This document shows positions 13,028-54,062 of a stretch of DNA of 64,000 bases, piece after piece. A program made the position numbers and the translations under genes. Under the pieces are notes generated by a model. The model had not been told where the DNA came from. It was given only the letters and a program-made list of their open reading frames with translations, and did not search any database. The stretch covers positions 124,001-188,000 of the forward strand of contig NC_015501.1 of NCBI RefSeq assembly GCF_000212375.1. The letters run 5' to 3'. Within the stretch, counting starts at the first letter, position 1. Each line of letters opens with the position of its first letter. This DNA comes from Porphyromonas asaccharolytica DSM 20707. GTDB taxonomy: Bacteria > Bacteroidota > Bacteroidia > Bacteroidales > Porphyromonadaceae.

Positions 13028-13541
13028 CAGGGCTGACGCATTATATACAGTGAGTTCATCTATCTCCTTATTTCTCGCTTGTCGCTAATATGTAGCTTCT
13101 GAAAGAGCGATTATGATGCGTTAGCCCTGACTGGGCAAATTAGGCGCTGGCTCGTTACAATAATTTATGACCAACTACATATCGATACGGAGCTGTGTTG
13201 GGGAAAACTGATTTCCACGTGGAGATTTCGAAATTTCCACGTGGAGGATTTTTATTTCCCACGTGGGGAAGAAAAAACTCTTCGGAGGAATCAAATGAAA
13301 CTTCGGAGGAAATGAATCACGCCCACGTGGAAAATAAAAAATATCCACGTGGAGATTTGAGATTTTCTACGTGGATTTTCAAGAAAGGAGGGAATCGGAC
13401 GAGTCCCCTCGTAAATATATGTAAAGCAACAAGAGGTGAGGATCGCGAGAATCCATGGGCTGACACATTACATTATAATGAGCTCATCTATGCCTCACTT
13501 GTCGCTAATGTGTAGCTCCTAATTATAATGCATCAGTCCTG
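13028..13541 (+). mobile_element. Composite repeat element (514 bp) with 10-bp target duplication, carrying a CACGTG array
   Basis: The ends are CAGGGCTGACGCATTATA and TATAATGCATCAGTCCTG, which pair as inverted repeats at 16 of 18 positions. The direct repeat TTTTGTAGAC flanks it (13018-13027 and 13542-13551). Inside are two direct copies of a roughly 95-bp mini-element (13028-13125 and about 13458-13541, each with GCTGACNCATTA-type ends) either side of the CCACGTGG array. An inverted relative is at 39403-39857. No transposase is encoded; the ORF across it (PRGD/STW-rich) is a by-product of the repeats. It fills the 660-bp gap between genes. Confidence 0.8.
13215..13374 (+). repeat. CCACGTGG six-site array, copy 1
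   Basis: Palindromic octamers start at 13215, 13237, 13259, 13323, 13345 and 13367 (the last is CTACGTGG): spacing 22, 22, 64, 22, 22. The 56-bp centre holds two copies of CTTCGGAGGAA around ATCAAATGAAA. The spacers of the left and right halves are partly complementary, so the whole can fold as one imperfect hairpin. Confidence 0.9.
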
Positions 13542-13570
13542 TTTTGTAGACTAATTTCTACATCTAGTTG

Positions 13571-20816: not shown

Positions 20817-20976
20817 CCACGTAGGGATTTCGAAATCTCCACGTGGAGAATAAAAATTCTCCACGTAGGCGAGAAATGAAATTTCGGAGGAATCAAATGA
20901 TAAGTCCGAAGAATTGATTTTTCCCTACGTGGAGAATAAAAAATAGCCACGTGGGAAATTGAAATTTTCCACGTGG
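20817..20976 (+). repeat. CCACGTGG six-site array, copy 2
   Basis: Octamers CCACGTAG 20817, CCACGTGG 20839, CCACGTAG 20861, CTACGTGG 20925, CCACGTGG 20947 and CCACGTGG 20969: spacing again 22, 22, 64, 22, 22. The centre contains TTTCGGAGGAATCAAATGA. It lacks the outer mini-elements seen with copies 1 and 4. It lies between divergent genes. Confidence 0.9.
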
Positions 20977-36710: not shown

Positions 36711-36738
36711 TGCCAAACTGTAGGGATAAGCGCAATCT

Positions 36739-36898
36739 CTACCGAGGAAATCGAAAATCTCCACGTGGGCAATTTATATTCTCCACGTGGGCGTGAAATG
36801 AAACTTCGGAGGAATCAAATGAAACTTCGGAGGAATTCTTTCTCGCCTACGTGGAAAATAAAAAATATCCACGTGGAGATTTGAGATTTTCCACGTGG
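36739..36898 (+). repeat. CCACGTGG array, copy 3 (site 1 decayed)
   Basis: Octamers at 36761, 36783, 36847 (CTACGTGG), 36869 and 36891, spacing 22, 64, 22, 22. Exactly 22 bp before the first is CTACCGAG (36739), a decayed sixth site. The centre has two AAACTTCGGAGGAAT repeats. No outer mini-elements. Confidence 0.88.
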
Positions 36899-36953
36899 CT
36901 ATCGCACAAAACGTGTAACAACGTGTAGGAATGCTCGGCTCGTGACGACTCCT

Positions 36954-37054: not shown

Positions 37055-37170
37055 GGGTTACACGTATCATCGTTACACGTCACGGGTTGCACGTATCATC
37101 GTTACACGTCACGGGTTGCACGTATCATCGTTACACGTCACGGGTTGCACGTATCATCGTTACACGTCAA
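37055..37170 (+). repeat. 29-bp tandem repeat, 4 units
   Basis: The unit GGGTTGCACGTATCATCGTT + ACACGTCAC is repeated four times head to tail (first unit has A for G at position 6; the last ends in A). No spacers. Confidence 0.92.
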
Positions 37171-38275: not shown

Positions 38276-38326
38276 AGACTCTAACCTCTAAAGTCTAATC
38301 TCTAACTTCTAATTTCTAACCTCTAA
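38276..38326 (+). repeat. CTCTAA/TTCTAA simple repeat between moxR and the DUF58 gene
   Basis: Seven or more degenerate copies of (C/T)TCTAA(C/T) run up to the ATG. Similar strings are at 39431-39471 and, inverted, at 53975-54035. They occupy the ribosome-binding region, so no Shine-Dalgarno is present. Confidence 0.8.
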
Positions 38327-39402: not shown

Positions 39403-39857
39403 CCCGGCTGACGCATTATAATATAATGTGTCACCCCTGCCCTCTAATCTCTAACCCCTAATCTCTAATTACATATCTTTACAGGGAAATTCGTCTGATT
39501 CCCTCCTTTCTCGAATATCCACGTGGGGAATCTAAAATCTCCACGTGGATGTTTTTTATTTTCCACGTGGGCGTCAAACAATTCCTCCGAAGTTTCATTT
39601 GATTCCTCCGAAGAATTTTTTCTTCCCTACGTGGAAAATAAAAATTCTCCACCTGGATATTTCGAAATATCCACGTGGAAATCAGTTTTCCCCGACATGA
39701 CGCCGTTTTGATATGTAGTTGGTTCTAAATTATTGTAACACGCCAACGTTGTATTTCCCCAGCTAGGAATGACGCATCATAATCACTCTGTCAGGAGCTA
39801 CACAATGGTGACCAGAGAGGAATAGGTGAACTCATTATATATAATGCGTCAGCCCTG
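39403..39857 (-). mobile_element. Composite repeat element, inverted relative of 13028-13541
   Basis: Read on the minus strand it begins CAGGGCTGACGCATTATATA (39857 downward) and aligns with the element at 13028 through TTACAATAATTTA, CCAACTACATAT, GGGGAAAACTGATTTCCACG, the array, and GAAAGGAGGGAATC. The far mini-element is shortened by about 45 bp and the far end is CCCGGCTGACGCATTATA. No target duplication is visible. A stretch of CTCTAAT repeats (39431-39471) lies inside. It fills most of the 740-bp gap 39200-39937; 39200-39402 shows nothing recognisable. Confidence 0.75.
39519..39678 (-). repeat. CCACGTGG six-site array, copy 4 (inverted)
   Basis: Octamers at 39519, 39541, 39563, 39627 (CTACGTGG), 39649 (CCACCTGG) and 39671: spacing 22, 22, 64, 22, 22. 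The centre is the reverse complement of the TTCGGAGGAATCAAATGAAA core of copies 1-3. Confidence 0.9.
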
Positions 39858-48290: not shown

Positions 48291-48311
48291 CTCTCAGCTG
48301 TTCGGCTAAAC

Positions 48312-48462
48312 GGTTCCTCCGTTGGAACCGAAAAGTTCCCACGCTGGAACTAAAGAGTTCTTCCCTTGGAACTAAAGAGTTCCTCTCTTGGAACTTTTTA
48401 GTTCCAAGAGGAGAACAATTTCTGGAACTCGTATCTATATCAAGTTCAGCACGATACGAACG
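48312..48462 (+). repeat. GGAACT/AGTTCC palindrome array, copy B
   Basis: TTGGAACCGAAAAGTTCC, CTGGAACTAAAGAGTTC, TTGGAACTAAAGAGTTCC and TTGGAACTTTTTAGTTCC at about 20-25 bp intervals, then the same tail as copy A (GGAACTCGTATCTATATC ... CAGCACGATACGAA). More units than copy A. Confidence 0.82.
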
Positions 48463-52610: not shown

Positions 52611-53972
52611 ATGCTGGTTATCCCAGAAGCTTTCGATCAGAACAATGCGGAGCAGATGTCTGCCCTGCAATGCCTCGAGCAGACCTCTATGAGTCTCTTC
52701 CTGACGGGTAGTGCGGGAACCGGCAAGTCCTACTTCCTGCAGCACTACTGCGAGGTGACTCACAAGAAGTTTGTCAAGCTTGCTCCGACGGGGCTAGCTG
52801 CGCTCAACATCCATGGGCAGACGATCCACAGCTTCTTCCGGCTACCACTAGCACCGCTGACAGATCCCAACCATACCTCCGCCATCACACGCCGCTACCG
52901 CAAGGACAAGCGGGAGCTCATTCGTCAGCTCGATCTGATCATCATCGACGAGATATCGATGGTGCGGTGTGACCTGCTCGATGCGATGGATCGTATCCTG
53001 CGCAGTGTGAGGCACAGCCGGGTGCCCTTTGGGGGTGTGCAACTCCTCATGGTGGGCGACCCTTTTCAGCTACCGCCAGTCACGACAGCCTCCGACCAGG
53101 AGGAGATGCAGCGCGCTTACCCTGAGAGTGACGGCTTTTACTTCTTTGAGGCGCACGCCTACGCTGCACTGGCACCCATCTCCATAGTCCTACGTCGCAT
53201 GTATCGCCAGAGCGATCAGCACTTTGTCTCCGCACTTGAGGAGATCCGTCTAGGACGTGTCAGCGATGATACGGTCGCCCTGCTCAACAGCCGCGTCTCC
53301 CCACAGTGGCAGAAGGAACTGCTCCAGAGCGATCAGCATGCGGTGCTACTCTTCTCTCACAGAGCCAATGTGGAGGCGTACAACCAGTCTCGCTGCGCCC
53401 AGCTTGATGCCAAAGAAGTAACCTTCCGCGGCAAGCTCAAGGGCAAGATCCCCGCCTCTGCTCTGCCCGTTCCCGAAGAGTTTTCGCTCAAGGTGGGGAC
53501 TCAGGTGATGCTCGTGAGCAACCACCCCGACGGGGCGTGGGTCAATGGCACGACGGGCGTCATCACGAAGCTCGTCGGCGGAACTATCGGTGACATCACG
53601 GAGCCTTATGCCAAGGTGAAAACGCCCGATGGCGAGACTATCATTGTCACGCCACACACCTGGTCGCAGGTGGACTACGACTACGACGAGGAGAAGGGAG
53701 AGATCGTCGAGCGACAGACCGGCTCCTACACGCAGCTACCGCTCATCGTCGCTTACTCCATCACGGTACACAAAGCGCAGGGGCAAACGTGCGACCAGAT
53801 CGTGGTCGACCCGAGTCGCTTCTTCGCCCCAGGACAAGGGTACGTGGCACTCAGTCGCTGTCGCACGCTCGAGGGTCTGACGCTCACACAGCCACTTAAG
53901 CCATACAACCTACGCACCGCCCCTTCGGTACTGCAATTCTACCGAAAGATCCTTTCAGAGGTTAGGGGGTAG
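52611..53972 (+). CDS. Pif1/RecD-like ATP-dependent helicase
   Basis: 453 residues from the ATG at 52611, 8 bp after queC (an upstream in-frame extension overlaps queC). SF1B motifs: Walker A GSAGTGKS (33-40), LAPTGLAAL (motif Ia), DEISM (113-117, Walker B), GDPFQLPPV (motif III), LRRMYRQ (motif IV region), and the C-terminal KAQGQT with VALSRCRTLEGL. Likely a 5'-3' DNA helicase for replication or repair. It is a common Bacteroidetes core gene. Confidence 0.92.
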   Translation: MLVIPEAFDQNNAEQMSALQCLEQTSMSLFLTGSAGTGKSYFLQHYCEVTHKKFVKLAPTGLAALNIHGQTIHSFFRLPLAPLTDPNHTSAITRRYRKDKRELIRQLDLIIIDEISMVRCDLLDAMDRILRSVRHSRVPFGGVQLLMVGDPFQLPPVTTASDQEEMQRAYPESDGFYFFEAHAYAALAPISIVLRRMYRQSDQHFVSALEEIRLGRVSDDTVALLNSRVSPQWQKELLQSDQHAVLLFSHRANVEAYNQSRCAQLDAKEVTFRGKLKGKIPASALPVPEEFSLKVGTQVMLVSNHPDGAWVNGTTGVITKLVGGTIGDITEPYAKVKTPDGETIIVTPHTWSQVDYDYDEEKGEIVERQTGSYTQLPLIVAYSITVHKAQGQTCDQIVVDPSRFFAPGQGYVALSRCRTLEGLTLTQPLKPYNLRTAPSVLQFYRKILSEVRG

Positions 53973-53974
53973 AG

Positions 53975-54062
53975 GGTAGAAGTTAGAGATTAGAGATTAG
54001 AGATTAGAGGCTAGTTTCTAGTGGCTCTAGTGTTTCTAGTGGCTCTAGTCGCACTAGCGTCC
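53975..54062 (+). repeat. TTAGAGA simple repeat and 18-bp tandem
   Basis: (TTAGAGA)-like copies run from 53978 to 54015, then AGTTTCTAGTGGCTCT / AGTGTTTCTAGTGGCTCT. It is the inverse of the CTCTAA strings at 38276 and 39431. The rest of the gap to 54345 shows nothing recognisable. Confidence 0.7.

What the first reader, a model, noticed from the sequence alone, without database searches (positions are those of the whole stretch)
13215..13374. Four copies of a six-site CCACGTGG array with invariant 22-22-64-22-22 bp spacing
Octamers CCACGTGG (variants CCACGTAG, CTACGTGG, CCACCTGG) sit at 13215/237/259/323/345/367, 20817/839/861/925/947/969, 36739(decayed)/761/783/847/869/891 and, inverted, 39519/541/563/627/649/671. 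Spacer sequences differ between copies but the spacing never does, even where octamers have decayed. 22 bp is close to two helical turns and 64 bp to six, so all sites face the same side of DNA. 22 and 64 are not multiples of 3, so coding constraint cannot explain it. The centre always keeps CTTCGGAGGAATCAAATGA. Either a dedicated protein binds six sites cooperatively, or the RNA/DNA hairpin formed by the symmetric halves is the selected object. I do not know of a described element with this form.
Basis: partly seen in the sequence, partly recalled or inferred. Interest (0 to 1): 0.85.

Follow-up and report, generated by a model that had tools for sequence, protein, structure and literature searches.

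The report
Evenly spaced 22-bp palindrome arrays
The six-site array is one of roughly 120 copies of a short DNA element that, together with unrelated-looking arrays sharing the same 22-base rhythm, marks a Porphyromonas chromosome at fairly even steps of about 13,000 bases, which hints at an unknown chromosome-organising role.

Summary
They belong to roughly 120 copies in this 2.19-Mb genome, probably Porphyromonas asaccharolytica (name recalled from genome length). In the half of the genome read, neighbouring CYACGTRG sites are exactly 22 bp apart in 290 of 294 cases. 'Spacing never varies' is wrong for the centre, which holds two or three 21-bp units (offset 64 or 85).

Three things go beyond the finding. 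(1) Arrays are evenly spread: in two fully read 400-kb stretches all families together lie 13-14 kb apart on average, CV 0.40-0.42, against 0.86-0.91 for random intergenic placement (0 of 5000 draws as even). (2) Arrays with other sequences but the same 22-bp dyad period (TTCC-N6-GGAA; GTTTC-N8-GAAAC) tend to fill the gaps, and at four loci related species carry different families in the same intergenic place. (3) P. uenonis keeps the centre but uses another palindrome; a more distant congener has further 22-bp families. In a sequence-blind scan of periods 14-33, 22 bp leads in most stretches; 200 kb of E. coli has none.

Best reading: sites of an unknown chromosome-organising system. Main rival: selfish repeats with insertion repulsion. 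No binding protein was found. My searches listed no description in print.

The parts
13211..13381 (+). Array copy 1: octamers at 13215, 13237, 13259, 13323, 13345, 13367; two 21-bp central units between
   Evidence: profile match 137209-137381 of the genome
20813..20986 (+). Array copy 2: octamers at 20817, 20839, 20861, 20925, 20947, 20969
   Evidence: profile match 144813-144986
36734..36905 (+). Array copy 3: octamers at 36739 (CTACCGAG), 36761, 36783, 36847, 36869, 36891
   Evidence: profile match 160734-160905
39511..39684 (-). Array copy 4, inverted: octamers at 39519, 39541, 39563, 39627, 39649 (CCACCTGG), 39671
   Evidence: profile match 163511-163684 on the minus strand
48306..48415 (.). 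Array of the second family (TTCC-N6-GGAA dyads, 22-bp steps); no octamer array lies between it and the end of the window
   Evidence: tandem repeat; pattern matches 172314-172415 of the genome
15694..15729 (.). Two units of the second family with one mismatch
   Evidence: pattern match 139694-139729

Best explanation
The arrays are lineage-variable sites of one chromosome-wide system that needs a row of short DNA dyads phased at 22 bp about every 12-14 kb. Proposed mechanism: a dimeric, oligomerising nucleoid-type protein (or a structure-specific one that recognises extruded hairpins) loads one dimer per dyad, all on the same face of the helix, and the loaded rows act as anchors or barriers that divide the chromosome into loops or supercoil domains of about 13 kb. 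Arrays are gained and lost between operons; what is kept is the density, the dyad symmetry and the 22-bp register, while the dyad sequence drifts in concert within a genome. Shown: rigid register, even spacing, several families with one period, copies gained, lost and replaced. Inferred: a binding protein, domain formation, and selection (rather than the way copies insert) as the cause of the spacing.
For: Even spacing in fully read stretches, all families: G000 440-840 kb 29 arrays, mean 13.8 kb, CV 0.40 (intergenic null 0.86); G000 1680-2080 kb 31 arrays, 12.8 kb, 0.42 (0.91); G025 57 arrays, 13.8 kb, 0.53 (0.90); 0 of 5000 null draws as even in each; P. uenonis 100 kb 10 arrays, 0.34 (0.74, P 0.002). 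Other families lie far from CCACGTGG arrays: P 0.004 (G000 second stretch), 0.010 (G025), 0.032 (P. uenonis 100 kb). In 1680-2080 kb adding the other families lowers CV from 0.57 to 0.38. A sequence-blind scan finds dyad arrays mainly at 22 bp; E. coli 200 kb has none at 22. Register 290 of 294. Dyad symmetry inside sites kept. Different families at the same intergenic place at four loci.
Against: No protein, contact or expression data. Families differ in sequence, so a single sequence-specific protein cannot explain all. P. uenonis 300 kb is only borderline even (CV 0.63 against 0.85, P 0.051); the avoidance test is not significant there (P 0.087) nor in G000 440-840 kb, which has one other-family array (P 0.145). 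Over the whole-genome list adding the second family lowers CV only from 0.52 to 0.50, though random addition would raise it to 0.62. Exchange of families at one place is 3 of 15 against about 5% by chance, P 0.036. Evenness could come from insertion immunity. Some G025 copies lie inside larger units with inverted ends.
Confidence: 0.42

Rival explanations
1. Selfish small interspersed repeats (MITE-like minisatellites in the manner of BrickBuilt or BOX) that spread by transposition or by conversion between copies; even spacing comes from target immunity or from loss of copies close to a neighbour.
For: High copy number, species-specific form (two or three central units), clean empty sites between close relatives. 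One G025 copy (686476) lies in a roughly 400-bp insertion with inverted ends and a 9-bp direct repeat that is single in this genome, read by eye. At 783354 a 7-base direct repeat flanks the insertion, which could be a target duplication or microhomology (by eye). BrickBuilt and BOX are precedents (PMC4596501, PMC3049150).
Against: Avoidance holds between families of different sequence; one period is shared by unrelated families; flanks of the short form are not conserved across copies; the Y1 transposase that mobilises REPs is absent from three of five array-rich genomes. I did not search for other transposases.
Confidence: 0.35
2. The arrays act as transcribed hairpin RNA: terminators, attenuators or insulators next to promoters.
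For: Strong folding: RNA z -11.9 for copy 1 and -7.1 for the second-family array; three of four DNA pieces have z below -4. Divergent intergenic regions are preferred, 41 of 94 against 94 of 371 (P 0.0009). Outer site pairs covary.
Against: No pairing excess in any of the four spacers and none between sites 3 and 4; the central DNA piece folds no better than shuffles (27 of 200 as good); terminators would not favour divergent regions; does not explain even spacing; no Rfam match in the window besides tRNAs.
Confidence: 0.1
3. DNA uptake or conspecific-recombination sequences whose even spacing follows from the length of exchanged fragments.
For: Even spacing of uptake sequences has been reported and debated (PMC1939737, passages read). 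An abstract in a listing mentions natural transformation in P. gingivalis (PMC5570325, listing only).
Against: A 174-bp multi-site array is far larger than known uptake words; several different families coexist in one genome.
Confidence: 0.04

Closest known systems
BrickBuilt MITE/minisatellite of P. gingivalis (PMC4596501; outline, section 5, part 1 of section 7 and section 9 read)
   Same: Same genus, always intergenic, tandem units of similar length, copies gained and lost between strains
   Different: 23-nt units without spacers, 1 to 22.8 units, 19 copies, leader and tail with IS5-type ends; the CACGTG word is absent from the paper text. Here fixed eight-unit arrays of dyads at 22 bp, about 120 copies, evenly spaced
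REP/BIME palindromes and their RAYT transposases (PMC2817692 abstract; PMC3733652 passages)
   Same: Intergenic palindromes in over 100 copies, composite arrays, proposed role in chromosome organisation
   Different: No associated Y1 transposase in three of five genomes; unit period fixed at 22 bp; several sequence families share one even spacing
BOX elements of Streptococcus pneumoniae (PMC3049150 passages)
   Same: Modular element with outer modules round a variable number of inner units
   Different: BOX is judged parasitic and its distribution is discussed relative to convergent genes; I saw no report of even spacing or of dyads at a fixed register in the passages
DNA uptake sequences of Haemophilus and Neisseria (PMC1939737 passages)
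   Same: Reported even spacing, once read as a sign of a role in replication, repair or compaction
   Different: Short words, many inside genes; no arrays

Membership tests
BrickBuilt | 23-nt direct repeats without spacers | tested here: not met
   290 of 294 neighbouring sites at 22 bp; central units 21 bp
BrickBuilt | Leader and tail with GAGACC-type inverted ends | tested here: inconclusive
   Column conservation stops about 5 bp outside the outer sites in 100 aligned copies. Some G025 copies have GAGACTGTTGCA ends nearby (by eye); a systematic search for ends was not made
REP/BIME | Cognate RAYT (Y1) transposase in the genome | tested here: not met
   Pfam PF01797: 2 matches in G000, 2 in G023 (one over the cut-off), none in G025, G005, G021
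REP/BIME | Repeated extragenic palindromes in high copy number | tested here: met
MITE | Terminal inverted repeats and target-site duplication | tested here: inconclusive
   Of the insertions compared with an empty site by eye (6, 9), one has clear inverted ends and a 9-bp duplication; one has an ambiguous 7-bp repeat
BOX | Homologous boxA, boxB and boxC modules | not tested
   No sequence comparison made
CRISPR | Identical repeats with unique spacers and cas genes | not tested
   Not searched for; eight units of about 22 bp with short spacers do not resemble a CRISPR (judgement)
Known structured RNA (Rfam 15) | Match at gathering score | tested here: not met
   Only three tRNAs in the window
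Nucleoid-protein or domain-boundary site | Bound by a protein in vivo and coincident with domain borders | not testable with these tools
   No binding or contact data

The most novel reading that the evidence does not exclude
Porphyromonas, and perhaps many Bacteroidota, carry a chromosome-wide lattice of structural DNA sites defined by architecture (rows of dyads at 22 bp about every 13 kb) and not by sequence, in which unrelated repeat families replace one another at lattice positions: a sequence-independent chromosome-organising code not previously described.
Probability: 0.36. Interest if true: 0.92.

Novelty: new variant of a known kind. Interest (0 to 1): 0.78.

Why it matters
Small intergenic repeats are mostly treated as parasitic or as scattered regulatory sites. 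Here the placement itself carries information: even spacing, mutual avoidance between families of different sequence, and one shared period. If selection keeps it, these arrays are a ready handle on how Bacteroidota chromosomes are folded, and the prediction (borders, bound proteins or supercoil steps at mapped sites) is directly testable. If it is insertion repulsion instead, it would be an unusual case of immunity acting across families.

Tried and rejected
Coding explanation: arrays lie in intergenic DNA by my own simple gene caller; an in-frame reading of the central 21-bp unit was considered by eye and dropped because many copies carry early stops. RNA structure as the single selected object: no pairing excess inside any of the four spacers, though outer site pairs covary. 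Replication-strand marker: orientation split about evenly (50 plus, 47 minus, 3 unclear). RAYT origin. Presence in viral contigs: the three-site pattern has no match there. Distant hits (Streptomyces, Burkholderiaceae, Calothrix and others) look like ordinary tandem repeats (by eye); ten other distant genomes have 2-19 pairs and were not followed further. Transcription-factor reading of CACGTG: not pursued. No structure prediction was run, as there is no protein to fold. One hit of the blind scan in G025 (287423) does not look like an array and was not counted.

Limits: the genome-wide array list is incomplete because pattern listings stop at about 100 places and BLAST scored 40 of 147 candidates; one of the 101 exact offset-64 arrays was never listed; a few of the 120 merged profile hits are small pieces. 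Most second-family clusters lie in the half where that list is poorest, so one search is weaker than the fully read stretches. Array sets differ between calls because score cut-offs differ (G000 1680-2080 kb: 21 CCACGTGG-family arrays above 60 bits, 24 with that family above 25 bits). Second-family clusters for one search were compiled by hand, leaving out matches inside CCACGTGG arrays. Intergenic gaps over 3 kb were left out of the context counts. Three of 100 arrays without clear orientation were left out of the 97-array alignment. Copies are related, so permutation P values overstate.

Full report
What was checked. The four arrays are where the finding puts them. Each is eight units long, about 174 bp: three octamer units, two central units and three octamer units. 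The central 21-bp unit (CTTCGGAGGAATCAAATGAAA) explains the 64-bp step as 22+21+21. The window lies at 124001-188000 of a single 2,186,370-bp contig. From memory that length is P. asaccharolytica DSM 20707; no call named it.

Copies and register. In the whole genome the two-site pattern occurs 605 times against 11 for its reversed control. There are 101 arrays with exact offset 64 and 5 with offset 85. A profile search of the 435 kb fetched by then gave 120 merged hits, a few of them small pieces. In the 1.09 Mb finally read, consecutive CYACGTRG sites 18-26 bp apart are at 22 bp in 290 of 294 cases. Spacers vary more than sites (1.18 against 1.64 bits per column, 97 arrays). So the rigid register is right inside each half and wrong for the centre, which changes by whole 21-bp units.

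Where it occurs. Of 38 genomes of the family, 5 have the two-site pattern without mismatch: the own genome 305, G025 274, G021 77, G023 5, G024 3. G023 has contigs of 388,310 and 306,555 bp, the lengths of two P. uenonis DSM 23387 scaffolds listed, so I take it as that strain. G025 is unnamed; proteins next to its arrays match this genome at a median of 96% identity among those with a hit.

Even spacing. Over the incomplete genome list the gaps have mean 18.2 kb and CV 0.53 against 0.99 for random points, with 11 gaps under 8 kb where 42 are expected. I therefore read whole stretches. In 440-840 kb the 28 CCACGTGG arrays have mean gap 14.3 kb, CV 0.39 and minimum 6.5 kb; intergenic placement gives CV 0.82-0.87 and never reached the observed value in 5000 draws at three length cut-offs. 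In 800 kb of G025 (43 arrays) CV is 0.59 against 0.89-0.92, P at most 0.0012.

Other families with the same period. While reading empty sites I saw arrays of other palindromes. TTCC-N6-GGAA pairs at 22 bp occur 93 times in this genome and 174 times in G025 at up to one mismatch, controls 1 and 0; of the 38 family genomes 14 have at least one match, some no more than their control. A third type, GTTTC-N8-GAAAC, came from a sequence-blind dyad scan. That scan, for periods 14-33 in six Porphyromonas stretches with two criteria, gives 22 bp the highest count in five of six stretches by the first criterion (in G005 23 bp has 8 against 6) and in five of six by the second (tied with 33 bp, three each, in 100 kb of P. 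uenonis); 33 bp, three half-steps of 11, has a smaller signal in several stretches. A Markov-resampled G005 gives at most one at any period. E. coli, 200 kb, gives none at 22 and one at 26.

Families share one spacing. The 27 second-family clusters compiled for this genome lie on average 10.4 kb from the nearest CCACGTGG array against 5.8 kb at random (none of 20,000 independent placements as far; rotation null P 0.002), and 11 of the 15 largest CCACGTGG gaps hold at least one. Two sit close: 125 bp and 2.4 kb. Adding them lowers the genome-wide CV only from 0.52 to 0.50, where random addition would raise it to 0.62. In 1680-2080 kb, fully read, CCACGTGG arrays alone have CV 0.57 and with the other families 0.38, mean 13.7 kb; the stretch made almost only of CCACGTGG arrays has 0.40 and 13.8 kb. 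The distance of other-family arrays from CCACGTGG arrays, with weaker arrays included, gives P 0.145 (one array), 0.004, 0.010, 0.087 and 0.032 in the five stretches. With all families counted, mean gaps are 13.8, 12.8, 13.8, 12.0 and 11.0 kb and CVs 0.40, 0.42, 0.53, 0.63 and 0.34, against intergenic nulls of 0.86, 0.91, 0.90, 0.85 and 0.74 (P 0, 0, 0, 0.051, 0.002 of 5000). Two further arrays found by the blind scan lie in gaps over 20 kb.

Turnover. Seventeen array loci of this genome could be aligned on both sides with the G025 stretch: 8 hold a profile hit inside the aligned interval in G025 (two of them degraded, one at the far end of a 1.7-kb interval) and 9 do not. At four shared loci with matching flanks G000 has two central units and G025 three, within the same total length (by eye), which points to homogenisation within each species. 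At 632308 the array is turned round relative to a shared right flank. Different families stand at the same intergenic place at four loci: 654809 and 713888 (CCACGTGG here, TTCC-N6-GGAA in G025), 790990 (TTCC-N6-GGAA here and in P. uenonis, CCACGTGG in G025), and about 1904217 (CCACGTGG here, GTTTC-N8-GAAAC in P. uenonis). At 654809 pieces of the other family flank the array (by eye). For G000 against G025 this is 3 of 15 places without a matching CCACGTGG array (9, 6), against about 5% by chance: P 0.036, suggestive only.

Other species. P. uenonis has arrays with the same centre but with CTACCTAGG/CCTAGGTAG sites and AATTTGCCAAATT-like spacers, still in 22-bp steps, seen by eye. G005, a more distant congener, has further dyads (TTTCCACTAGTGGAAA, GATTTATATATAAATC, AATAGTATATACTATT) at 22 bp. 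Scattered Bacteroidota and a Chlorobiota genome carry lineage-specific 22-bp arrays found through the CYACGTRG pattern; these were chosen by the pattern, so they show existence and not frequency.

Placement relative to genes. Of 145 intergenic regions with arrays, 78 are tandem, 41 divergent and 26 convergent; among regions with at least 150 bp besides the array, divergent ones are favoured (41 of 94 against 94 of 371, P 0.0009, own gene caller). Orientation is about equal on both strands.

Structure. Both RNA folds and three of four DNA folds are far more stable than shuffles; the central DNA piece is not. Covariation in 97 aligned copies, double changes observed against expected: inside sites 44 against 19.7; sites 1-2, 16 against 8.8; sites 5-6, 21 against 5.0; sites 2-3, 10 against 6.9; sites 4-5, 7 against 6.0; sites 3-4, 17 against 16.7; the four spacers below expectation; of two tests between mirrored spacers one is slightly above (paired fraction P 0.006). 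Dyad symmetry of the sites and of the outer pairs is kept; a full-length hairpin is not supported.

Known elements. The nearest described element in the genus is BrickBuilt (PMC4596501; outline, section 5, part 1 of section 7, section 9). It differs in unit length, copy number and ends. REP/BIME (PMC2817692 abstract, PMC3733652 passages) and BOX (PMC3049150 passages) are similar in kind; the Y1 transposase of RAYT systems is missing from three of five genomes tested. Ten full-text searches listed no paper that I recognised, from titles and abstract beginnings, as describing these arrays or their spacing; this covers open-licence PMC papers only. Passages of PMC5771137 were also read and do not mention them.

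Verdict. Best reading: variable sites of a chromosome-organising system; main rival: selfish repeats with repulsion. What separates them is protein, contact and deletion data, and a comparison of old against young copies.

Noticed in passing
window 37055-37169: Four near-identical 29-bp tandem units (98% match) shortly after array copy 3.
   Followed up: no
window 38279-38326, 39442-39469, 53957-54014: 7-bp telomere-like CTCTAAT/CTCTAAC repeats, common in G000 and G025 intergenic DNA and often beside arrays.
   Followed up: no
L316-L335 (G005): Besides 22 bp, dyad arrays at 23 bp stand out (8 by one criterion), recalling the 23-nt BrickBuilt unit.
   Followed up: partly
window 13030-13135 and 13455-13545: Inverted elements with CAGGGCTGACGCATTATA-type ends flank array copy 1; similar ends lie beside copy 4 and beside several G025 arrays.
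   Followed up: partly
L156, L167, L194, L198, L201 (Chlorobiota MAG); L175, L177, L178, L184 (Prevotella RUG759); L181 (Bacteroides UBA939): Lineage-specific 22-bp dyad arrays scattered over several contigs in other Bacteroidota and Chlorobiota genomes.
   Followed up: partly
G025 686347-686750: An array inside a roughly 400-bp unit with TACTGCTGTCCGG-type inverted ends and a 9-bp direct repeat, single at the empty site in this genome.
   Followed up: partly
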